Origin: Deltaproteobacteria bacterium
GTDB lineage: Bacteria; Desulfobacterota; Desulfarculia; Adiutricales; Adiutricaceae
Direction of reading: 5' to 3'
Assembly (NCBI GenBank): GCA_031264145.1
Contig: JAISEK010000127.1
Location: 1-64,000, forward strand
DNA: 64,000 nucleotides
Part shown: piece after piece, positions 5,346 to 43,225 of the stretch
Position numbering within the stretch: the stretch's first letter is position 1
Layout: each line of letters starts with the position of its first letter
Notes under the pieces: generated by a model
What the model saw: the letters and a program-made list of their open reading frames with translations, nothing else
What the model was told of the DNA's origin: nothing
Database searches by the model: none
Program-made: the position numbers and the translations under genes

Positions 5346-5412
5346 GGATTGTTCCTCGGGGCCAAGGCCGGCCTTCGGCTAGGGCGCCGGGGTGACGGCC
5401 GGGGACGCCCTT

Positions 5413-20388: not shown

Positions 20389-21491
20389 GGGGTTTTCCAG
20401 CTGCCGGCTTGGTTGGCTGGCCAGGGGAATGCCCCGGCCTTGACCTTTGGTCGCTTTAAAACGATTTCTTTGGCTTTTGGCTAAAAAAGCATGCTGTTTT
20501 GGTGTACAGGGACAAAAAAGACAGAAACTGGCTTACGGAATCTGGGCCGGGATCAAAAAAATAGGCCCACCCGTCCAGGGATCCAGGGCCCGAAGGACAA
20601 GTTATATTACATCACGGTCCGGGCAAAGTCCACACGGCCAGGCCAAACCCAGGCCCATGGCCCAGCCTGGCGGCCTATTCGCCGGCCGACGCCAAGGGCC
20701 CGGGCCCAGAGGGGACGACCATGCGGGGCCGATCGCCGTCTCGCCGGGCCGGACGGCCGCAAGGGACGATATCCGGCTTATTTGAGGCTAGACGGAAACG
20801 CGCGCCGATAGGGCGGCGGGCCGCGCCCATCTCCGGGGGCGCATGGACATCGCCGGGGATCCTGCCTGGAGGCCAAGGCCTCGGGGCGCCGTCGTAGGCC
20901 CCAGGCCGTGGCGAGGCAAGGACCAGGCAAGCCAGCGGGGCCATGGGTCTGCCGGCGGCCAACAGGACCAGCTATGCCCGGCCCATCAGGGGACCGGCCC
21001 CATGTGTCCGGACGGCCACGGCAAGAGGGCCTCCCTGGGGTCAAGGGACGCCAAGGCCCCTTCCTCCAAGACCCCGGGGCCAAGTTACCGGCCAAATCGT
21101 TCCCGACGGGACCGCCCTGGCGGCCAAGCCGGGGCAAAGGCACCGCCTGGCCGTCCTGTCCATGCTGGCGGCCAGGAAGGAGGTCCTCCCGGCATTTTCC
21201 CATGCCGCGCCGCCTGTGGCGATCCAGGGAATGGCATGGCCGATCACCTGCCCATGGCCAGCGCCCCCTGGTGACCATGGGCCCACTGGCCTGACGCCTG
21301 GATTCGTCCGACTGCCCAGACGTTCTGGGCAATATCGTCGGCTCTCCGTCATTGCCCCATCGGCGCCTCGCCGGCGACGATGATAGCCCGCTGGTCCCGG
21401 GGTGCGAGTTGGCCTGCCCCGCATGAGGCCGCCATGGTCTGGGGATTTCCGGGGCCAGGGGCTAGGGGCTCCCCCAGGGGCTCTTTCCCGA
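20389..21491. other. Long GC-rich spacer without a supported gene
   Basis: About 1.1 kb separate rpoH from the Rpn-type gene. Many overlapping frames are open on both strands, but their products are low-complexity (Arg/Pro/Gly-rich) and none has a good start region or a recognisable motif. A -10-like TAATAT with a TGGACT 17 bases upstream lies near 20600-20635 on the minus strand and might serve rpoH. Otherwise nothing is seen. Confidence 0.5.
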
Positions 21492-21520
21492 CTGACATTC
21501 AGGCACATTTGTGCTACACT
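21492..21520 (+). promoter_or_regulatory. Promoter for the Rpn-type gene
   Basis: CTGACA (21492-21497) and TACACT (21515-21520) are spaced 17 bases apart, 31 bases before the ATG of the following gene. The close fit in spacing and position makes this a likely promoter. Confidence 0.6.
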
Positions 21521-21550
21521 AGGAGCTTAATATATTGCGAGGTATGCCGA

Positions 21551-22488
21551 ATGACCAAAACTGCCCCAGAACGACCAAGGCGAAAAACGGAAGTCGCCTT
21601 CATGTCCCCTTTGGCCTATCCTGTCGCGGATGAGCTTTTCAAGAACGAACAAATCGCCGGCCTGGCCGCATCTAGCCTCATCTACGCGGTGTTGGCCCCA
21701 CGCGATGAAAAGTTCGGCGACGTCGCTTCCCTAACGGTCCAGCAGCATGTGTCCAGACTCTTCAGGCGCAGCTGCCGCATCGACATCGTCGCCAAAAACG
21801 GAGCCGGCGAGACAGCGATCTTTGAGGTACGGCTCTATCACGACAAAAATATTCTCCAGCGCAATCTTCTGGAAGCCTCCCATATCTTCATCAGCACGGC
21901 GAGAAAGGGGACCACCCCCGCGGAGATGGCTTCCGAGATGCCCAGAGTCATCGTGATCAACATCTTCGGGAGCGAGAGCGACTGCCGGGATGACAACAGG
22001 GAACTCCTTCAGCCCATCGCGTTTTCGTTCAAGAAGATACCCAACCGCGCCGCATCGGACGATTATGAGGTCTTCAACGTACAGCTGCCCTATTTTCCAG
22101 AGGAGCCGGAGAACTACCCGGACCCGTTTTACTGCTGGTGCAAGCTTCTTTATGAAATGCACTTCAACGGCAAGCTACCTGAGGAGATATTCGCCATGGA
22201 ACCAAGACTGAAGAGATTCGTGTCTATGACGACAGAGGGGCGGAGCAGTTCGTGAACCGATACAGCGAGGTCATCTCAAGCCCCGAGGTGCAGGAAGCGT
22301 TCAAGGCCTGGATCTCTGATTTTCATGACAACAGCGTTCTGGCGGGGGAACGCGCGGCAGGGATGGAAGAAGGGATGGAAAAAGGGATGGAAAAAACCGC
22401 AAAAAATATGCTTGAAATCGGACTTGACACTGACACCATCGTAAAAGTAACTGGATTCACTAAAGAGAAGATTGATTCCATGCGCTGA
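21551..22488 (+). pseudogene. Rpn-family recombination-promoting nuclease / PD-(D/E)XK 'transposase', frameshifted
   Basis: The first part (MTKTAPERPRRKTEVAF, 234 aa) has the Rpn-type layout: SPLAYPVADELFKNEQ, then RIDIVAKNGAGETAIFEVRLY, which carries the D...ExK-type catalytic core with Arg after EV. The frame ends at 22255. The rest of the protein (NRYSEVISSPEVQEAFKAW...ERAAGMEEGMEKGMEKTAKNMLEIGL, the typical Rpn tail) continues in another frame from about 22240 to 22488. Adding one G to the GGGG run near 22237-22240 would restore one ORF. It is either a decayed gene or a slippage site. The start has GAGG upstream and its own promoter. Confidence 0.82.
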
Positions 22489-22562
22489 CAGTTTTTTGGG
22501 CGGCAATTTCTGTCATTTTCTGTTCCATCTGAAGGAACTGAATGATTTTGTCTGGCCTGGCT

Positions 22563-22693
22563 CAATGTCAACAATTTAAGACGCTCTGCCCTCAGATATG
22601 AGAAAAATGGTTCTCGTTCATGGCCTGCTCACTGGAGAGCAAGACGTTTGGTTTTTGTACCTGGCACTGAGACTGCCTAAGCTGCTGACATTG
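22563..22693 (+). repeat. Inverted-repeat-bounded element, copy A (131 bp)
   Basis: The element begins CAATGTCAACAATTTAAG and ends CTAAGCTGCTGACATTG, giving imperfect terminal inverted repeats of about 17-18 bp. The interior aligns along its full length with the reverse complement of 43081-43225 (shared blocks include GATATGA, TCGT.CATGG and TTTTTGTA). No clear target-site duplication is visible. It resembles a MITE or the remnant of an insertion element. Confidence 0.65.
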
Positions 22694-22714
22694 ATTGGAC
22701 ATGGTGAAGCTTAG
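22598..22714 (+). CDS. Possible 38-codon ORF spanning repeat copy A
   Basis: ATG at 22598 opens a frame reading MRKMVLVHGLLTGEQDVWF and ending in KLLTLIGHGEA. Copy B of the repeat keeps the same frame over KVLVHG.LT.EQ and over the terminal LKLLTL, apart from one missing base and one stop. Shared coding-like structure suggests a fragment of a once-longer gene or a small protein. No ribosome-binding site is seen, and the function is unknown. Confidence 0.25.
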   Translation: MRKMVLVHGLLTGEQDVWFLYLALRLPKLLTLIGHGEA

Positions 22715-25295: not shown

Positions 25296-28200
25296 ATGGA
25301 TTTCCAGGACATACTGCGCAAGTATCGCGCTGAAGCGTTCAGCCAGCGGGACAAGGGCGACCACTTCGAAAGGCTCATGGCCAACTTTTTGAGGACATAT
25401 CCTCCTTACGAGGGGGAGTTCGCCAAGATCTGGCTTTGGAAGGACTGCCCATTCCACAAGAGTATCAGCCCGTCCGGCAAGGACATCGGGATCGACCTCG
25501 TTCTGAGGAACGTGGACGGCGGATACTGGGCCGTCCAGTGCAAGTGCCTTGTCGAGGACGCCTATGTGAACAAACAGGCGGTCGACAGCTTTCTTGGGGC
25601 CAGCGGCAAGCGTTTCAGGGATGAGGCTGGACGAGAGTCCGTCTTCTCGAACCGTCTGTGGATCGCCACGACCGACAACTGGTCAGCCGAGGCCGAGCGC
25701 GAGTTGGACAACCAGACCCCCTCTGTCAACAGGATTGGCCTGGCCAACCTTGACGCGGCGGACGTTGACTGGGACAAGCTTGATCGGGGTCTCCACGGAC
25801 GAGAGGCCAGGCCTCCCCGCAAAACCTTGATGGAGCACCAAAGTATCGCCCTGGAGAAGGCCGTGGAGCACTTCAAGGAGCATGACCGGGGCCAGCTCAT
25901 CATGGCTTGCGGGACGGGCAAGACCTTCACCTCACTCAAAATAGCTGAGGAACTGACCAAAGGACGGGGACTGGTCCTGTTTCTGGTCCCCTCCATCGCC
26001 CTGATCGGCCAGACACTTAGGGAATGGACGGCTAACGCCAATAGTCACTTCCATGCTGTGTGCGTCTGCTCCGATGCCGAGGTATCCAAAGGCAGTGAAA
26101 AAATAATGAACGACCGCGACATGTCATCGGTGGTCGATCTGGCCCTGCCGGCCACTACCGATCCTCTACAAATACTGAGACAGTTGGAGCATGGCCGACT
26201 AAAATCGCCTCAACGCCTCAATGTAATATTTTCCACCTACCATTCAATAGAGCGGGTGGCTCAGGCACTCAAGACCGGCAAGCATGTCGTGGATCTTATT
26301 GTGTGCGACGAGGCCCACCGGACCACCGGGGTGATCTCGCCCGACGACGAGGAGAGCCATTTTGTCAAGGTCCACGACCCAGGTTTCATAATAGCGAAGA
26401 AACGCATGTACATGACGGCCACCCCAAGGATTTTCGCTGACATGGCGAAAAAAAAGGCCGAGAACTGCTCGATGGCCCTCTGTTCAATGGACGATGAAAG
26501 CCTGTACGGCCCAGAAATCTACCACCTTGGTTTCGGAGAGGCCGTTGACCGGGGACTTCTCTCCGACTATAAGCTTCTTGTCCTGACTGTTAACCGGCTG
26601 GCAGTCCCTGAGGAGCTCCAGGCCGTGGCCGCCGAGGGGAAAAAAGAGATCGATACCGATGCCGTCACCAAGCTCGTTGGCTGTCTAAACGCCTTGTCCA
26701 AAAACATGGACTATGAGCACAAAATCCTAAGCGAGGTTGACCCTGGCCGCATGCGCAAGGCGGTGGCCTTCTGCCAGACCATACCTAATTCTATGGCCAT
26801 AACGGGAAGGCTCAACCGGCTCAATGGTGACTTGGCAAGCAAGTTAACCAATGATGAGCTGGAGAGACTGGTCGATGTCAGCGCAATGCACATAGATGGG
26901 CGCATGGGGGCAACGGAACGGGACAGGCTGATGTCCTGGCTGAAAGCCGAGTCCGGCAACCAGAATGACTGCCGGGTACTCACCAATGTCAGATGCCTGA
27001 GTGAAGGAGTCGACGTACCCACATTGGACGCAGTTCTGTTCATTTCGCCCAAGAACTCCCAGATTGAGGTGGTCCAGTCAGTAGGCCGCGTAATGCGCAG
27101 GGCCCCTGGCAAGAAATTTGGATACATCATCATCCCTGTGATAGTGCCTTCTTACGTGGAAGGAGAAGCTGCCCTGGATGAAAACAAGGAATACGAGGTG
27201 CTCTGGACAGTCTTGAATGCGCTGAAGGCCCATGATGACCGCTTCAAAGCCATAATCAACAAGATAGAGTTCAACGTGGACCAGACTGATGGCAAGGGAA
27301 AATTCATAATAGGAGGAATAGCCGGTTCAGTAGAGGAAACCAAGCACTTGGCTATCCAAAAGGCCAAGGCCCAGGATCTCCTGGCCAAGGTCAGGGAAAA
27401 GGAACTACTCCTTCACAACGCAATATACGCCAAGATTGTAAAAAGGATGGGCAGCAAGCACGACATGATGCGGTGGGCGATGGATGTCGCTAAGATTGCC
27501 GATGGCTTCAAGAAGAGGATCGCCACAGTCGTCGGACAGGATGGCCCACACAAAATCGAGTTTGAAAATTTCCTTGAAAGCCTCAGGCAAACCCTCAATC
27601 CCTCGATCAATGACGCCGAGGCCATTGAAATGCTGGCTCAACACCTGATAAGTAAGCCAGTTTTCGAGGCTCTGTTCGACGACTATTCCTTCGTCAAGAA
27701 CAATCCTGTCTCAAGGTCCTTAGAGGCCATGATTGACGTCCTGGAAGATCAGGGCCTTGAGAAGGACAAAATCATCCTTAGCCGGTTCTACAAGACTGTC
27801 AGGGATGAGGTCGCCGGTATCGACAATCCCGCCGCCAAGCAGAAGATCATGGTCAACCTCTACGAGAATTTCTTCAGGCTGGCCATGCGCAAGACGGTTG
27901 ACAGGCTGGGCGTGGTCTATACCCCGATAGAGGTGGTCGACTTCATAAACCATTCGGTGGCCAAGGTCCTGAGGAGCGAGTTTGGCCGGGACATCTCGGA
28001 TCCTGAAGCCCACATTCTTGACCCATTCGCCGGAACCGGGACCTTCATCGCCAGGCTGATCCAGACGGGGCTTCTGGGGGAGGGCGACAGGCTGGCATAC
28101 AAATACGCTAACGAGCTTCATGCCAACGAGATGGTTCTGTTGGCCTATTACATAGCCAGCGTCAATATTGAGAACGCCTATCATGCGGCCATGGGCGAGC

Positions 28201-30155
28201 CGACCGACTACCACCCCTTTGACGGCATATGCTTGACCGATACTTTTCAACTTTTTGAAAACAACACGACAGATATCTTAAAAGATCAACGCCTAAAGCA
28301 AAATATTGAACGTGTTAATACTCAAACGTTAATTCCAATAACGGTTATAATTGGCAATCCTCCGTATTCCGTAGGCCAAGGCGATGCCAACAAAAATGCC
28401 AAAAATCAATTTTACCCCTTATTGGAACAGCAAATAAACTTGACTTATGGTCATGAATCTGTCTCGGCTAATGTGAAATCATTGTACGACTCATATATCA
28501 AAGCCATACGATGGGCTTCCAATAGGCTAGAATTGGAAGGTTGCGGGGTTGTGGCCTTTGTATCAAACGCCGGATGGCTGGACGGCAACGCCATGGACGG
28601 CATGAGGAAATGCCTCGCCGAGGACTTCAGCAAGATATATATCTTCAACTTGAGAGGCAATCAAAGGACTTCAGGGGAATTATCAAGAAAGGAAGGTGGC
28701 AAGATTTTTGGGTCTGGCAGCCGGACGCCCATAGCCATCACCATACTGATAAAGAACCCGGCCCATAAAGGCCAGGCTGAAATCTATCATCATGACGTCG
28801 GCGACTATTTGTCTCGAGAAGACAAGCTGGCTATATTGGCCAAGGCACATGACCTGTATAATCCAGGTTTGGCCTGGGAAAAGATTGAACCTAATGAAGC
28901 CGGTGATTGGTTAAATCAAAGAAGTGATACGTTCAAAAAATTCTATCTTATTGGTAAAAAAAATTACTTTTTAACTATTTTTAAAGATATTTATTCTTAT
29001 GGAATTACGACAAATAGAGATATATGGAATTATAATTACTCTAAAAATAATTTACTCGAAAATATAAATAATTTAATATCTTTTTATAATTTTCAAAGAA
29101 AAAAATATAATAAAATAAAATTAAATAATGATTTAACAAATATAAATTCAATAATTGAATATGATAATTGTAAAATAAGTTGGTCAAGATCTTTAATTAA
29201 GAATATTGAAAGAAATATACAACTAAAATTTGATAGCAAAAATGCTGCTATATCATTATATAGACCTTTTTTAAAACAACATTTATATTTTGATAAAAAA
29301 TTAATAGAATATATTTATACAATACCTCAGTTATTTCCAACCCAAAATCACCACAATTTAGTCATTTGTGTTTCTGGGATTGGCGTAAACAAAGAATTTT
29401 CTACAATAATGACCAATATTCTTCCTGACTTAGAATTAATTGGAAAGTCCCAATGTTTCCCCCGCTACCACTATGAGGATCTCAAGACTGAGGGCGGGAC
29501 CCAAAAGAGGACCCTTTTTGACTCGGGTACGATAATTGACGGCCACAAACGCCATGACGCCATAACGGACTACATTCTTGAGGAGAGCCGGGCCAGGTAT
29601 GGCTCAAAGGTCAACAAGGACGCCATCTTTTATTACGTGTATGGCTTTCTTCATTCAGAGGACTACAGGGCAGCGTTCTCGGCCGACCTGAAAAAGTCGC
29701 TGCCCAGGCTGCCCCTGGTGGACAAACCGGAGGACTTTTGGGCCTTCTCCAAGGCCGGCCGGGACCTGGCCGAGCTTCACCTCAATTATGAGACGGTCAA
29801 GCCTTACGGCCAGGCCAAGGTCACCGGCGAGGACAGGGGCGACTTCATCGTCGAAAAGATGCGCTTCGCCGGCAAGGACGACAGGACGGCCATCCTGTAC
29901 AACCAGTCCATCACCGTCAGCGGCATCCCCCCGGAGGCCTACGATTACGTGGTCAATGGCCGATCGGCCATCGAGTGGGTCATGGACCGCTACCAGGTCA
30001 AGGTCGACAAGGACAGCGGCATCAAAAACGATCCCAACGACTGGGCCAGGGAGCACGGCCAGCCCAGGTACATCCTGGATCTCCTGCTTGGCCTCATAAC
30101 CGTCAGCCTGGAGACCATGAAGATCGTGAAGGGCTTGCCAAAGTTGGAGTTTTGA
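25296..30155 (+). CDS. Type ISP restriction-modification enzyme (nuclease-helicase-methyltransferase fusion)
   Basis: A single 1619-aa polypeptide with the LlaGI-type order. A Mrr-like PD-(D/E)XK nuclease comes first (GKDIGIDLVLRNVDGGYWAVQCKC, residues 61-84). A superfamily 2 translocase follows (GTGKTF near 206, CDEAHRT near 336, VQSVGRVMRRAPGKK), then a coupler. The N6-adenine methyltransferase has DPFAGTGTF near 908 and GNPPYSVG near 1020, and the C-terminal target recognition domain comes last. It should both methylate and cut at one asymmetric site. Codons around 1200-1385 (28920-29450) are strikingly AT-rich, while the flanks are GC-rich, which points to exchange of the recognition domain. 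The start has AAAGGT upstream. Confidence 0.93.
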   Translation: MDFQDILRKYRAEAFSQRDKGDHFERLMANFLRTYPPYEGEFAKIWLWKDCPFHKSISPSGKDIGIDLVLRNVDGGYWAVQCKCLVEDAYVNKQAVDSFLGASGKRFRDEAGRESVFSNRLWIATTDNWSAEAERELDNQTPSVNRIGLANLDAADVDWDKLDRGLHGREARPPRKTLMEHQSIALEKAVEHFKEHDRGQLIMACGTGKTFTSLKIAEELTKGRGLVLFLVPSIALIGQTLREWTANANSHFHAVCVCSDAEVSKGSEKIMNDRDMSSVVDLALPATTDPLQILRQLEHGRLKSPQRLNVIFSTYHSIERVAQALKTGKHVVDLIVCDEAHRTTGVISPDDEESHFVKVHDPGFIIAKKRMYMTATPRIFADMAKKKAENCSMALCSMDDESLYGPEIYHLGFGEAVDRGLLSDYKLLVLTVNRLAVPEELQAVAAEGKKEIDTDAVTKLVGCLNALSKNMDYEHKILSEVDPGRMRKAVAFCQTIPNSMAITGRLNRLNGDLASKLTNDELERLVDVSAMHIDGRMGATERDRLMSWLKAESGNQNDCRVLTNVRCLSEGVDVPTLDAVLFISPKNSQIEVVQSVGRVMRRAPGKKFGYIIIPVIVPSYVEGEAALDENKEYEVLWTVLNALKAHDDRFKAIINKIEFNVDQTDGKGKFIIGGIAGSVEETKHLAIQKAKAQDLLAKVREKELLLHNAIYAKIVKRMGSKHDMMRWAMDVAKIADGFKKRIATVVGQDGPHKIEFENFLESLRQTLNPSINDAEAIEMLAQHLISKPVFEALFDDYSFVKNNPVSRSLEAMIDVLEDQGLEKDKIILSRFYKTVRDEVAGIDNPAAKQKIMVNLYENFFRLAMRKTVDRLGVVYTPIEVVDFINHSVAKVLRSEFGRDISDPEAHILDPFAGTGTFIARLIQTGLLGEGDRLAYKYANELHANEMVLLAYYIASVNIENAYHAAMGEPTDYHPFDGICLTDTFQLFENNTTDILKDQRLKQNIERVNTQTLIPITVIIGNPPYSVGQGDANKNAKNQFYPLLEQQINLTYGHESVSANVKSLYDSYIKAIRWASNRLELEGCGVVAFVSNAGWLDGNAMDGMRKCLAEDFSKIYIFNLRGNQRTSGELSRKEGGKIFGSGSRTPIAITILIKNPAHKGQAEIYHHDVGDYLSREDKLAILAKAHDLYNPGLAWEKIEPNEAGDWLNQRSDTFKKFYLIGKKNYFLTIFKDIYSYGITTNRDIWNYNYSKNNLLENINNLISFYNFQRKKYNKIKLNNDLTNINSIIEYDNCKISWSRSLIKNIERNIQLKFDSKNAAISLYRPFLKQHLYFDKKLIEYIYTIPQLFPTQNHHNLVICVSGIGVNKEFSTIMTNILPDLELIGKSQCFPRYHYEDLKTEGGTQKRTLFDSGTIIDGHKRHDAITDYILEESRARYGSKVNKDAIFYYVYGFLHSEDYRAAFSADLKKSLPRLPLVDKPEDFWAFSKAGRDLAELHLNYETVKPYGQAKVTGEDRGDFIVEKMRFAGKDDRTAILYNQSITVSGIPPEAYDYVVNGRSAIEWVMDRYQVKVDKDSGIKNDPNDWAREHGQPRYILDLLLGLITVSLETMKIVKGLPKLEF

Positions 30156-30604: not shown

Positions 30605-32104
30605 ATGCCTATACCTCAGGATATTCTCTCGGTCGAAAGGCCAACGAACACCGTGGTAACCGCTTACGGAAAAAACAAAAACCTCTATGCCGTGAGGAAA
30701 CGGACGGGCTGCAGATACGTTGGCGGAAGGCGCGTGCCGATTAACGGCCCAACAATAGGGCATATCATCGACGGCATGTTCGTGCCGATAGACTCCGCCG
30801 CTCCGGGGAATGTATCCGTGTCGCCGGCGGATCTGAAAGACTGGGCAAACGTCGTGTTATGCGACGATGTCAACAAAGACATGATCGACGAGCTCTGTCA
30901 AGTCTATGGCAGAGCGGACGCCTTGAAGATTTATTGCGTGTCGACGCTTCGCGTCTGCGATCCGGGAATAAAAGACCATGAACTCAAAAATGCCTATGAC
31001 GCCAGCTTTTTGTCAGAGATTTATTCGGGAGTCGCCTTATCAAAGAACGCCGTGTGCGATTTTCTGAACGATCTTGGAAGAACCTGTTCCCGCATCGTCT
31101 CGTTTATGAGGAACAGGACAGCCGCCGTCGATATGAGCCATCACCTCCTGATAGACGGGACGTTGAAATCCGATGAGTCAAAAGTCAATTCTTTATCGGA
31201 CTTCTCAAGGAAGGCACGCGCGAAAAGGACGCGGGACATATCGGTATTGTACGCGTTTGACCTTGAGTCGATGGAGCCCATCTGTTCCAAATGCTTTCCG
31301 GGGAACATGCCCGACATGACTTCCTACGAGGCGTTCATATCGGAAAACCGCATCACTAAAGGCGTGATCGTCGCCGATAAAGGATTCCCGGCTTCCGCGG
31401 CGGGGGAATATTTCCGAAATCACCCGGATTTGCACTATCTTAATCCGATCAAGAGAAACGCGAAGGTGATAGATGATTTACGGCTTTTGGATTTCACCGA
31501 TATCCTCGATGGGTATGATGGCGTCACCTACGTCAAGAAAGAGCACGCCAGACAGGGCAAATGGCTGTATTCTTACCGTGACGCCCACAGGGCCGCCAAG
31601 GAGGAGCAGGACTGGCTGCGGCGCGCCAAAAAAAAAGGGAACTTTGATTATATCGAGCTACAGGGCAAACAGCGGGTATTCGGGACAATGGTGTTGGAGT
31701 GTGACCTTGACCTGTCGGCGGGGATCATCTACAAGGCGTATGAGAAACGATGGGAAATCGAGATCGTGATGCGGTATTACAAGTCAGCCCTTGAGTTCGA
31801 CGAGACGCGTGTCCATGACGATTATTCCGTGATGGGCAGCGAATTCTGTGATTTCCTCTCGACCGTGTTGACTTTTAAGCAGCTCAGACGGTTTGATAAG
31901 GTCAAAATTCTTGAAAAATACACATATAAGAAAATCATGTCCGTACTTACAAGGGCAAAAAAGGTGAGGCTTGATGGGGATAACTGGAATCTCATTAAAA
32001 TCAATCCGTCTTACGAAGAGATGCTGAAAGATTTGGGTATCCTGCCAAAACCGGACGAACTGCCCAAACAAAAAAGAGGAAGGCCTCGGAAAACCGATGT
32101 ATAG
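30605..32104 (+). CDS. IS4-superfamily DDE transposase (IS1634-like)
   Basis: A 499-aa transposase. The DDE core is visible as LLIDGTLKS (first Asp), VIVADKGFP (second Asp) and the signature YEKRWEIEIVMRYYK, which fits the Y-2-R-3-E-6-K rule of the IS4 superfamily and supplies the catalytic Glu. The C-terminus is basic (KQKRGRPRK). The ATG is preceded by AAGGGGGGATC. The gene is intact, so the element may still be active. Confidence 0.93.
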   Translation: MPIPQDILSVERPTNTVVTAYGKNKNLYAVRKRTGCRYVGGRRVPINGPTIGHIIDGMFVPIDSAAPGNVSVSPADLKDWANVVLCDDVNKDMIDELCQVYGRADALKIYCVSTLRVCDPGIKDHELKNAYDASFLSEIYSGVALSKNAVCDFLNDLGRTCSRIVSFMRNRTAAVDMSHHLLIDGTLKSDESKVNSLSDFSRKARAKRTRDISVLYAFDLESMEPICSKCFPGNMPDMTSYEAFISENRITKGVIVADKGFPASAAGEYFRNHPDLHYLNPIKRNAKVIDDLRLLDFTDILDGYDGVTYVKKEHARQGKWLYSYRDAHRAAKEEQDWLRRAKKKGNFDYIELQGKQRVFGTMVLECDLDLSAGIIYKAYEKRWEIEIVMRYYKSALEFDETRVHDDYSVMGSEFCDFLSTVLTFKQLRRFDKVKILEKYTYKKIMSVLTRAKKVRLDGDNWNLIKINPSYEEMLKDLGILPKPDELPKQKRGRPRKTDV

Positions 32105-39891: not shown

Positions 39892-41154
39892 CTAGCCGGC
39901 CGGCCCCGGCGAGGCCTGTTCCCTGGGGCCGGCCGTCCCTCGCCGTATAAGGGCCCTGAGCATGAAAAGGCCGGGGAGGGTCATGAAGGCCCCCAGGAGG
40001 TAGAAGCAGGGCCAGCCCAGGTGGTCGACCAGCCAGCCCGAGGGGCTGGAGAGAAGGCTCCTGGGCAGGGCCATGAGGCTGGTCAGGAGGGCGTACTGGG
40101 TGGCCGTGTAGCTCACGTTGGTCTGGGAGGCCAGGAAGGCCACGAAGACGGTCGACCCCGCCCCCACGACCAGGTGGTCGAGGGTGATGAAGAGGGCCAG
40201 CCAATAGCCTTTGGCCGGCAGAAGCCAAAGGGCCGTCAGGCAGGCGTTGTTGGCCAGCTGGAGCCAGCCGAAGCCCCAGAGGCAGGGGACCAGGCCCCTG
40301 AGCTTGACCATGTAGCCGGAAAGGGCGACCCCGGCCAGGGTGCCGGCCAGGCCGAAGGCCTTGACGATTAGGCCGATCTGGATCTTGGAGTAGCCGGCGG
40401 CCATGAAGAAGGTGGTGTTCAGGCTGCCGATGAGCTGCTCGCCGAACTTGTAGAAGAGGATGAAGGCCAGCAGGAGAAAGGGGTCTCTCTGGGAGAAGAA
40501 GTCCTTCATGGGCCCGGCCACGCTCTCCCGGATGGTCCTGGGGGGGCCATGGGGCACGTCCGGCTCGGGGCTGAAGAGAAGGGTCAGGGGCCCGACCAGG
40601 ATGAGGCCGGCCGCGATCCTGAAGGCCACGGCCCAGCCCAGCCGGTCGGCGACGACGAGGCCGCCGCCGGCCACGGCCACCATGCCCAGCCTGTAGCCCC
40701 AGATGTAGGCGGCCGAGCCGGCGGCCAGCTCGTGGTACAGGAGATCCTCACGCCGGTAGGCGTCGACGGCGATGTCCTGGGTGGCCGACCAAAAGCTGAC
40801 CGAGGCGGCCAGGAGGACCACCCTGGGCACGTCCAGGGGGCTGGCCATCGAGAGGCCGACGAGGGACATGATGAGGCAGGCCTGGCTGATGACGAGCCAG
40901 CTCTGGCGCCGGCGGCCGAGGGGGGCGAAATAGTCCAGGTAGGGGGCCCACAGGACCTTCAGGCTGTAGGGGAGGCTGACCAGGGTCAGGAGGCCTATGG
41001 TCGTCAGATCCAGGCCGCCATCCTTGAGCCAGGCCTGGACTAGGGTGATGACCACCACCAGCGGGACCCCGGAGACGAAGCCCATCAGGAAGCTGGTGGC
41101 CAGGGGCCGGGTCCTGGCCCCGGCTAGTTCTTTACCGCGTCTTCCTTCAGCCAT
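39892..41154 (-). CDS. ampG: AmpG-like major facilitator permease
   Basis: A 420-aa, twelve-span transporter. The N-terminal region SFLMGFVSGVPLVVVITLVQAWLKDGGLDLTTIGLLTLVSLPYSLKVLWAPYLDYF and the segment SATQDIAVDAYRREDL are strongly AmpG-like. AmpG imports anhydro-muropeptides for cell-wall recycling and feeds beta-lactamase regulation in Gram-negatives. The ATG overlaps the end of the ExeA-like gene by 31 bases. No other recycling genes are in the window, so substrate assignment rests on family only. Confidence 0.85.
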   Translation of the reverse strand: MAEGRRGKELAGARTRPLATSFLMGFVSGVPLVVVITLVQAWLKDGGLDLTTIGLLTLVSLPYSLKVLWAPYLDYFAPLGRRRQSWLVISQACLIMSLVGLSMASPLDVPRVVLLAASVSFWSATQDIAVDAYRREDLLYHELAAGSAAYIWGYRLGMVAVAGGGLVVADRLGWAVAFRIAAGLILVGPLTLLFSPEPDVPHGPPRTIRESVAGPMKDFFSQRDPFLLLAFILFYKFGEQLIGSLNTTFFMAAGYSKIQIGLIVKAFGLAGTLAGVALSGYMVKLRGLVPCLWGFGWLQLANNACLTALWLLPAKGYWLALFITLDHLVVGAGSTVFVAFLASQTNVSYTATQYALLTSLMALPRSLLSSPSGWLVDHLGWPCFYLLGAFMTLPGLFMLRALIRRGTAGPREQASPGPAG

Positions 41155-42887
41155 AGCTCAGCCACGATCAGCCACTCGTTGGAGCGGTTCTTTTCCAGGA
41201 TAAGGGTTCTGAGGCCTATGTTGTGGCGGAGCTTCGAGTCGTACTTGAGGGTGAACACTGCCCAGGCCCGGCCATGGTCGGTGGGGTCGAGCATGATGAG
41301 GGGATCGGAGATGGCCAGCGTGACCTCGCCAGCGCCCATGGCCTCGGACTCCAGGGTGAGCCGGAAGTTCCGGCGGGAGATGGAGACCGGCTTGCGGCCT
41401 GGCTCGAAGAAGGAAAAGCTCTCGGCGTAGAGGGCGGCCATGTCCTCGGACCGCTTGAGCCTTTGGGCGACGGTCCATTTGTCCAAAAGCGCCGCAAGGC
41501 TGGAGGCGGGCCTCTGGGGCACCGGCTCGGCCAGGTCCTGGGGCCGGCCTATCACCAGGGGCAGGACGTCCTGGGGCAGCATCGACTCGACCTGCTGCCA
41601 CAGCTTGTCGGCCGCGGCCTTGGGGACGTCGTTTTCCGGGGGATAGCGGAAGATGATGGGGGTCCGGCTCCTGGGACGGCCCACCAGGTAGAGGCCCGGC
41701 TCCCTGATGTCAGGGGCGGCTATCTCGGCCTTGAGGCCAGGGCCGGAGAGGCCTCCCTGCCAGAGGCGGGCCATCCTCTGCCCGCTCTCGACGACCAGGG
41801 CCACCGTGCTCTGGGGCAGCCGAAGGATGGTCGTCGGCAGCGACGGCAGGCCCATGGACCCCTCGTCGGCCGGGTCGGCCGCCGGGGTGGCCTCGGGGCC
41901 CACTGGCTGGGGCCCGGCATCGCGGATTTCCTCGGCGGCCACGGTCTCCTCGGCCCCGTCGGGGGACGGCCACAGGAGCCAGACCATGGCCCCGACGATC
42001 AGGACAGCGGCCATGAGGGGCGGCCAGGAGCGGCCGGCCGCATGGTGGCGCTCCCGGCCCGAGCCGGCGGCGACCTTGGCCGCCCTGGTGTCGACGGTCA
42101 GGGGGTTGTCCAGGCTGGCCTTGGCCTGGATGACGTGGTTGTTGGATATCTGGCTCTTGCCGGCCGCCCAGGCGGTCATGAGGGCCTTGTCGGCCAAGGC
42201 GTTTATTTGACCAGCCAGGCCGTGGCTGTAGCTCTGGAGGGTCGTCAGGGCCTCGGTGGAAAACAGGTCCCTAGTGGCCCCGGCGGCGCCCAGGCGGAAG
42301 CGGACATAGTCCATGGTCTCGTTGAGCCCGAAGGGGACCAGCTCCACAACCTGGCCCAGCCCCTGGAGCGCCGGCGGCGGCCAGTCCCCGGCCGGGCCGG
42401 CCAGCATCAGGGAAACCCGCCCCCGCCAGCCGGGCTCGAGGCTGGCCAGGGCCATGAGGTCGGAAGTGGTCTCCCCGTCAAGGTCCTGGGCCTCGTCCAC
42501 GGCCAGCACCAGGCCCAGGCCCTGGCCCACGTACTCGGAGACGGCGTTCTGGAAGAAGCCTATCAGCTCCTCCTCCCGGGCCGATGGAGGACACTTGAAG
42601 CCCAGGCCCAGGAAATTCAGGGCCTCCCTCAGGATGTCGCCCAGCCTGGGGGAGGGGTCAAGGACCGGGGCCATCCTGGTCGCGTCCCTGACCGCCTGGG
42701 GCAGCCTCCTGACCAGGGTGCTCTTGCCAGAGCCCTGATGGCCCCTCAGGAGCAGAAGACCAGGCAGCCTGGGGCCGGAGAGGATTTGGCAGAGATTTTC
42801 AAAGACAGTCCCCCTGTAGAAGAATTTGGCTTCCAATGTGGCCTTGAAGGGACGATCGTTTAGCTTGAAAAACTCTTCGTAATCCAT
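41124..42887 (-). CDS. ExeA/GspA-like AAA ATPase with a membrane span and NTF2-like C-terminus
   Basis: A 587-aa protein. The N-terminal half is an ExeA-type ATPase: DYEEFFKLNDRPFKATLEAKFFY, Walker A LLRGHQGSGKSTLV, Walker B LVLAVDEAQDLDGE. A membrane span (about residues 295-312, WPPLMAAVLIVGAMVWLLW) leads to a periplasmic region ending in a fold resembling the NTF2-like Cds6 domain (LLDKWTVAQRLKRSEDMAALYAESFSFF...AWAVFTLKYDSKLRHNIGLRTLIL). ExeA proteins help insert secretin through peptidoglycan. The start MDYEEFF is used because a promoter lies over the earlier ATG. No secretin gene is nearby. Confidence 0.8.
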   Translation of the reverse strand: MDYEEFFKLNDRPFKATLEAKFFYRGTVFENLCQILSGPRLPGLLLLRGHQGSGKSTLVRRLPQAVRDATRMAPVLDPSPRLGDILREALNFLGLGFKCPPSAREEELIGFFQNAVSEYVGQGLGLVLAVDEAQDLDGETTSDLMALASLEPGWRGRVSLMLAGPAGDWPPPALQGLGQVVELVPFGLNETMDYVRFRLGAAGATRDLFSTEALTTLQSYSHGLAGQINALADKALMTAWAAGKSQISNNHVIQAKASLDNPLTVDTRAAKVAAGSGRERHHAAGRSWPPLMAAVLIVGAMVWLLWPSPDGAEETVAAEEIRDAGPQPVGPEATPAADPADEGSMGLPSLPTTILRLPQSTVALVVESGQRMARLWQGGLSGPGLKAEIAAPDIREPGLYLVGRPRSRTPIIFRYPPENDVPKAAADKLWQQVESMLPQDVLPLVIGRPQDLAEPVPQRPASSLAALLDKWTVAQRLKRSEDMAALYAESFSFFEPGRKPVSISRRNFRLTLESEAMGAGEVTLAISDPLIMLDPTDHGRAWAVFTLKYDSKLRHNIGLRTLILEKNRSNEWLIVAELWLKEDAVKN

Positions 42888-42940
42888 CGGTTGTTTTCCA
42901 TGGCGGCTTGGTTGGCCATAGTATTCGTTAAAATCGTTAT

Positions 42941-42969
42941 ATTTTAGCATGAATTAGAAGTCTTTTCAA
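42941..42969 (-). promoter_or_regulatory. Promoter of the ExeA-like gene
   Basis: TTGAAA (42964-42969) and TAAAAT (42941-42946) on the minus strand are 17 bases apart. The expected start point near 42934 lies downstream of the first listed ATG (42950), which supports the start at 42887. Confidence 0.65.
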
Positions 42970-43080: not shown

Positions 43081-43225
43081 CAATGTCAACAACTTAAGCC
43101 AATCTTGGCATCCAGTCTCGGTATCAATTACAAAAAATCAGGCGTATTGCTCCACAGTTAGCTGACCATGGACGAGCACCTTTTTTTCATATCCGAGGGT
43201 TGGACACCTTAAGCTGTTGATATTG
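43081..43225 (-). repeat. Inverted-repeat-bounded element, copy B (145 bp)
   Basis: It begins CAATGTCAACAACTTAAG and ends CTTAAGCTGTTGATATTG, so its termini are inverted repeats of 18 bases with three mismatches. Its reverse complement aligns with copy A at 22563-22693 over the whole length, with one 6-base indel near the right end and single-base gaps. The reading KKVLVHGQLTVEQYA corresponds to KMVLVHGLLTGEQDV in copy A. It lies in the spacer upstream of the ExeA-like gene, with no gene on either immediate side. Confidence 0.65.

What the first reader, a model, noticed from the sequence alone, without database searches (positions are those of the whole stretch)
22563..22693. Two-copy element with terminal inverted repeats and a shared short reading frame (copies at 22563 and 43081)
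Both copies start with CAATGTCAACAAxTTAAG and end with its imperfect inverse. Copy B is in opposite orientation (145 bp against 131 bp). The interior is similar along the whole length, and the copies share a coding-like reading (K.VLVHG.LT.EQ), even though one copy has a frameshift and a stop. It may be a MITE, or a fossil of a transposon gene whose reading frame included the inverted end.
Basis: seen in the sequence. Interest (0 to 1): 0.6.

Follow-up and report, generated by a model that had tools for sequence, protein, structure and literature searches.

The report
IS4-family miniature transposon (MITE), many copies
The two repeats are old copies of a small gene-less mobile element that occurs dozens of times in this bacterium and is probably moved by the enzyme of a larger IS4-type insertion sequence; the kind is ordinary, though the same 18-letter ends recur on unrelated small elements in distantly related bacteria.

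Summary
Copies A (22563-22693) and B (43081-43225, reverse) align along their length far above shuffles. They are not just a pair: the 4.0-Mb genome has 119 matches to the 18-bp terminal repeat (control: 1). I paired 48 elements of 121-148 bp: 33 of the window type, plus 11 and 4 of two other types with unrelated interiors but the same ends. Of the 48, 11 have perfect 10-bp and 4 perfect 9-bp target duplications; none are perfect at 5-8 or 11-15 bp. These are transposition products: MITEs.

The probable partner is an IS4-family element with the same ends. The genome holds its transposase 3' end (C158) and apparent 5' end (C23); a sister genome has a 254-bp element joining sequences like both; a complete 1407-bp IS with identical ends is in a rumen Clostridiales genome. 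The window MITE's own interior does not significantly match this IS.

The "coding-like" reading is not a gene: 14 of 33 copies are shifted, the consensus has a stop, Pfam finds nothing. Both window copies lack target duplications.

The same end with 10-bp duplications bounds 17 further unrelated groups of small elements in Deltaproteobacteria, Synergistaceae and Clostridia. New families of a known kind.

The parts
22563..22693 (+). MITE copy A, 131 bp, short form of the cluster-3 subfamily (lacks about 14 bp near the 3' end)
   Evidence: no TSD (10 of 10 mismatches); shares its left flank with a paralogue at G000:C198:8347-8478 through a segmental duplication
22563..22580 (+). left TIR of copy A (CAATGTCAACAATTTAAG)
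22676..22693 (-). right TIR of copy A, 2 mismatches to the search pattern (CAATGTCAGCAGCTTAGG)
43081..43225 (-). MITE copy B, 145 bp, long form of the cluster-3 subfamily, opposite orientation
   Evidence: no TSD
43081..43098 (+). TIR of copy B, perfect to the family consensus (CAATGTCAACAACTTAAG)
43208..43225 (-). TIR of copy B (CAATATCAACAGCTTAAG)

Best explanation
Both repeats are decayed copies of one non-autonomous miniature element (MITE). It has 18-bp terminal inverted repeats and no gene of its own, and was mobilised in trans by a DDE transposase of an IS4-family insertion sequence with the same ends, which leaves 10-bp (sometimes 9-bp) target duplications. Shown: the copies, the ends, the target duplications, an IS4-family transposase fragment next to the same TIR in the same genome, a sister-genome element joining sequences like both IS ends, and three unrelated interiors sharing one TIR. 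Inferred: that this transposase moved them, and that the window subfamily arose by internal deletion of, or sequence capture between, ends of such an IS.
For: 119 TIR matches (<=3 mismatches) vs 1 in the control. 48 paired elements; perfect direct repeats only at 10 bp (11, 16 with <=1 mismatch) and 9 bp (4), none at 5-8 or 11-15. Three interiors with common TIRs. C158:1-693 is the C-terminal 230 aa of a transposase with the IS4 YREK motif (YFRRWPIETLYSKVK; Pfam DDE_Tnp_1, NCBIfam IS4_1 2e-19), followed by a perfect TIR. C23:1-235 is the apparent 5' end of the same IS. In sister genome G003 a 254-bp TIR-bounded element (L104) aligns to both the C23 and C158 ends and has an 8/10 TSD. Complete 1407-bp IS with perfect TIRs and a 456-aa transposase over the IS4_1 cut-off in L195. 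E. coli IS4, ISPa1635 and a Desulfosarcina IS4 have related ends.
Against: The interior of the window subfamily does not significantly match the known IS ends (best p=0.038 uncorrected over 12 comparisons), so its own origin by deletion is not shown. The IS in this genome is split over contig ends, so an intact active copy is not shown. The two window copies have no recognisable target duplications.
Confidence: 0.93

Rival explanations
1. The copies are fossils of a transposon (or other) protein-coding gene whose frame ran into the inverted end, later broken by a frameshift and a stop.
For: One frame of the consensus is open except for a single TGA over 48 codons, the third codon position is slightly more variable (0.218 vs 0.176 and 0.154; permutation p=0.048) and the synonymous fraction is highest in that frame.
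Against: 14 of 33 copies are shifted in the centre, the frame is no longer than in shuffles, no Pfam match, and other MITE types with the same TIR have unrelated interiors.
Confidence: 0.03
2. The repeat is an RNA-level or regulatory element (structured RNA, outward promoter) kept by selection, not a mobile relic.
For: The whole element can fold as a hairpin through its TIRs, and 67 of 96 outward ends carry TTGACA.
Against: No compensatory pair in 32 predicted pairs. -10-like hexamers at 16-18 bp spacing are no commoner than at control spacings (1 of 96 with >=5 matches; 10% vs 12% with >=4). The target duplications show transposition.
Confidence: 0.02
3. A variant of the best explanation: the window subfamily derives from a different, unsampled IS4 relative or from host DNA captured between two TIRs, with the resident IS only mobilising it in trans.
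For: Interiors match neither end of the resident IS, nor any of 36 other genomes of the family apart from a 28-bp hit. Elsewhere many unrelated interiors share these ends.
Against: The sister-genome element L104 shows that simple internal deletion does occur in this IS lineage.
Confidence: 0.5

Closest known systems
IS4 family (ISfinder; Pfam DDE_Tnp_1 PF01609, NCBIfam NF033592)
   Same: Transposase of the same-ended IS scores over the curated IS4 cut-off (L195, 161 vs 115 bits); YREK motif; TIR related to E. coli IS4 (TAATGCC....CAGTTAAG), ISPa1635 (CAATGTCATCAACTT) and a Desulfosarcina IS4 (CAATRTCATTAACTT); TSD of 9-10 bp.
   Different: The window elements carry no transposase.
IS4-derived MITE of Haloquadratum walsbyi (ISHwa2; 237 bp, 34 copies, IR 17, DR 5; PMC3852290 table 4)
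   Same: Non-autonomous, tens of copies, short TIRs, attributed to IS4.
   Different: Listed direct repeat 5 bp against 10 bp here; archaeal host. TIR and interior sequences were not compared.
Other bacterial MITEs (Coxiella PMC5896051, Porphyromonas PMC4596501)
   Same: Same kind of element: gene-less, TIR-bounded, multi-copy (from titles and abstracts).
   Different: Sequences not compared; parent IS families may differ.

Membership tests
MITE | Short (under about 500 bp), multi-copy | tested here: met
   48 paired elements of 121-148 bp
MITE | Terminal inverted repeats exactly at the element ends | tested here: met
   18-bp TIRs; copies end at the TIRs
MITE | Target site duplication | tested here: met
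   10-bp (11 exact) or 9-bp (4 exact) in the family; the two window copies themselves show none
MITE | No transposase gene | tested here: met
   No coding support
MITE | Autonomous partner with the same TIRs | tested here: met
   Same-genome C158 3' end (partial) and C23 5' end; complete in L195
IS4 family (the partner) | DDE transposase with YREK motif | tested here: met
   the C158 fragment alone is below the NCBIfam cut-off (69.8 vs 115 bits), as only 230 aa are present
IS4 family (the partner) | TIR and TSD of IS4 type | tested here: met
   TIR compared with three IS4 members; TSD 9-10 bp
IS4 family (the partner) | Mobilises the window MITE in trans | not testable with these tools
   Needs a transposition assay

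The most novel reading that the evidence does not exclude
A guild of miniature elements in gut and related bacteria of several phyla is defined by one almost invariant 18-bp IS4-type end, while each host species builds its own interiors. IS4 transposases of this group would then mobilise, across phyla, anything that falls between two such ends.
Probability: 0.35. Interest if true: 0.4.

Novelty: new member of a known kind. Interest (0 to 1): 0.22.

Why it matters
It adds three MITE families and their probable IS4 parent to an uncultured Deltaproteobacteria genus. It also shows one 18-bp transposon end, with the same 10-bp duplication, shared by sequence-unrelated miniature elements in Deltaproteobacteria, Synergistaceae and Clostridia. 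That makes these elements annotatable and gives a simple test of how much sequence outside the end an IS4 transposase needs. Otherwise it is ordinary mobile-element biology.

Tried and rejected
Coding test in six frames, codon-position variability, Pfam at E<=10: no gene. RNA structure by RNAalifold: no covariation. Outward hybrid promoter from TTGACA in the TIR: no enrichment of -10 hexamers. Origin of the interior from the resident IS ends: not significant. Empty sites in the genus: only the gene beside copy B is conserved, not the flanks across the insertion; nothing useful for copy A. IMG/VR viral contigs: no exact TIR. The intact IS4 on C99 as parent: rejected, its TIR is CAATACTGTTCA. 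Paper search for the TIR sequence and for termite gut + MITE + IS4: no hit.

Full report
Observation. Copies A (22563-22693, +) and B (43081-43225, -) are present as described. They align end to end with a score of 134 against at most 47.6 in 300 shuffles; GC is 47% and 43% against 62% for the window.

Copy number and ends. The window lies on contig C68 of a 4.01-Mb, 198-contig draft genome. DNA searches with A and B return several dozen places. The 18-bp end CAATGTCAACARYTTAAG with up to three mismatches matches 63 + 56 times, against 0 + 1 for the reversed control pattern. I paired 48 elements of 121-148 bp. Direct repeats flanking them are perfect at 10 bp in 11 and at 9 bp in 4, and in none at 5-8 or 11-15 bp. 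That is the signature of transposition and fixes the ends at the TIR. The two window copies have no such duplication, so they are old or rearranged (inference).

Subfamilies. Clustering gives three groups: 33 elements of the window type (a long form of about 145 bp and a short form of about 131-135 bp; B is long, A is short), 11 of a second type (131-134 bp) and 4 of a third (143-146 bp). Their interiors are unrelated; only the ends are shared. The window type was not found in 36 other genomes of the same family, apart from one 28-bp match.

The partner. Two contig ends carry the same TIR next to low-GC DNA. C158:1-693 encodes the last 230 aa of a transposase with the IS4 motif YFRRWPIETLYSKVK (Pfam DDE_Tnp_1; NCBIfam IS4_1 at 2e-19, the fragment being below the whole-protein cut-off), and a perfect TIR follows at 723-740. 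C23:1-235 has the TIR, AT-rich DNA and an open frame at the contig edge. In sister genome G003 a 254-bp TIR-bounded element (L104) aligns with the C23 end at 72% over about 195 bp and with the last 45 bp of C158 at 84%, and has an 8/10 duplication. That element is what an internal deletion of such an IS would leave, and it links the two contig ends. A complete IS with the same perfect TIRs (1407 bp, 456-aa transposase, 161 bits against a cut-off of 115) is in a rumen Clostridiales genome (L195). Ends of E. coli IS4, ISPa1635 and a Desulfosarcina IS4 are of the same type. The one IS4 transposase of the own genome that passes the cut-off (C99) has different ends, CAATACTGTTCA, with a perfect 10-bp duplication.

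Interior of the window type. It does not significantly match either end of that IS (best p=0.038 uncorrected over 12 comparisons), so whether it arose by deletion of an unsampled relative or by capture of other DNA between two ends is open.

The reading frame. The consensus of the 33 copies reads NVNNLRCPTLRYEKMVFVHGPLTEEQDV*FFVLGTETGCRDWLKLLTL. It contains a stop, is shifted in 14 of 33 copies, is no longer than chance, and matches no Pfam family at E<=10. A weak codon-phase signal (p=0.048) does not outweigh this. No covariation supports an RNA, and outward TTGACA boxes in the TIRs are not followed by -10 hexamers more often than at control spacings.

Where the copies sit. A lies downstream of a PD-(D/E)XK nuclease-family gene (Pfam PDDEXK_2) inside a segmental duplication shared with C198:6923-8479 at 81%, whose MITE copy is at the same place. 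A and that copy therefore probably descend from one insertion. B lies upstream of an AAA ATPase gene (41124-42950, -).

Wider distribution. Among 148 genomes (own plus relatives), 13 have the TIR with at most one mismatch, mostly in the same family. I believe from memory that this MAG series is from termite guts; I did not check it. I scored 38 short elements from 17 other hosts whose 10-bp duplications have at most two mismatches (28 perfect). Their interiors fall into 17 unlinked groups, nearly all private to one host or close relatives; with the window genome's three there are 20. This count depended on the duplication filter and on interiors hitting each other at E<=1e-3, so very short or AT-rich interiors could be split.

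Verdict. The elements are new families of a known kind, with an identified probable IS4 partner. The only mildly surprising point is the shared end across phyla. IS4-derived MITEs are already on record (PMC3852290).

Noticed in passing
L195:165-1571 (ONHJ01000006.1, uncultured Clostridiales RUG299): Complete 1407-bp IS4-family element with two perfect CAATGTCAACAACTTAAG ends; its flanks show only a 6/10 direct repeat.
   Followed up: partly
G000:C99 (L289:1170-2705): Intact-looking 1536-bp IS4-family element with different ends (CAATACTGTTCA) and a perfect 10-bp duplication TGGCTAGGAG.
   Followed up: partly
G000:C198:1662-8479 (L063): Tandem segmental duplication carrying several copies of a PD-(D/E)XK nuclease-family gene with (E/K)GM(E/K)KGM repeats, also present in the window at about 21113-22694; one copy ends in a truncated MITE end at 5390-5407.
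   Followed up: partly
window 25296-30155 (+): 1619-aa single-chain Type ISP restriction-modification enzyme (Mrr_cat_2, ResIII helicase, coupler, Type_ISP_C).
   Followed up: no
window 30605-32104 (+): 499-aa ORF matching the IS4_1 transposase profile weakly (42.8 bits, below cut-off); no clear flanking inverted repeat found.
   Followed up: partly
JAISFS (Gx485_bin53) loci, e.g. L155:92-193: 102-bp elements with the same TIR and mostly perfect 10-bp duplications; that genome (G034) has 125 TIR matches with at most one mismatch, more than the window's genome (71).
   Followed up: partly
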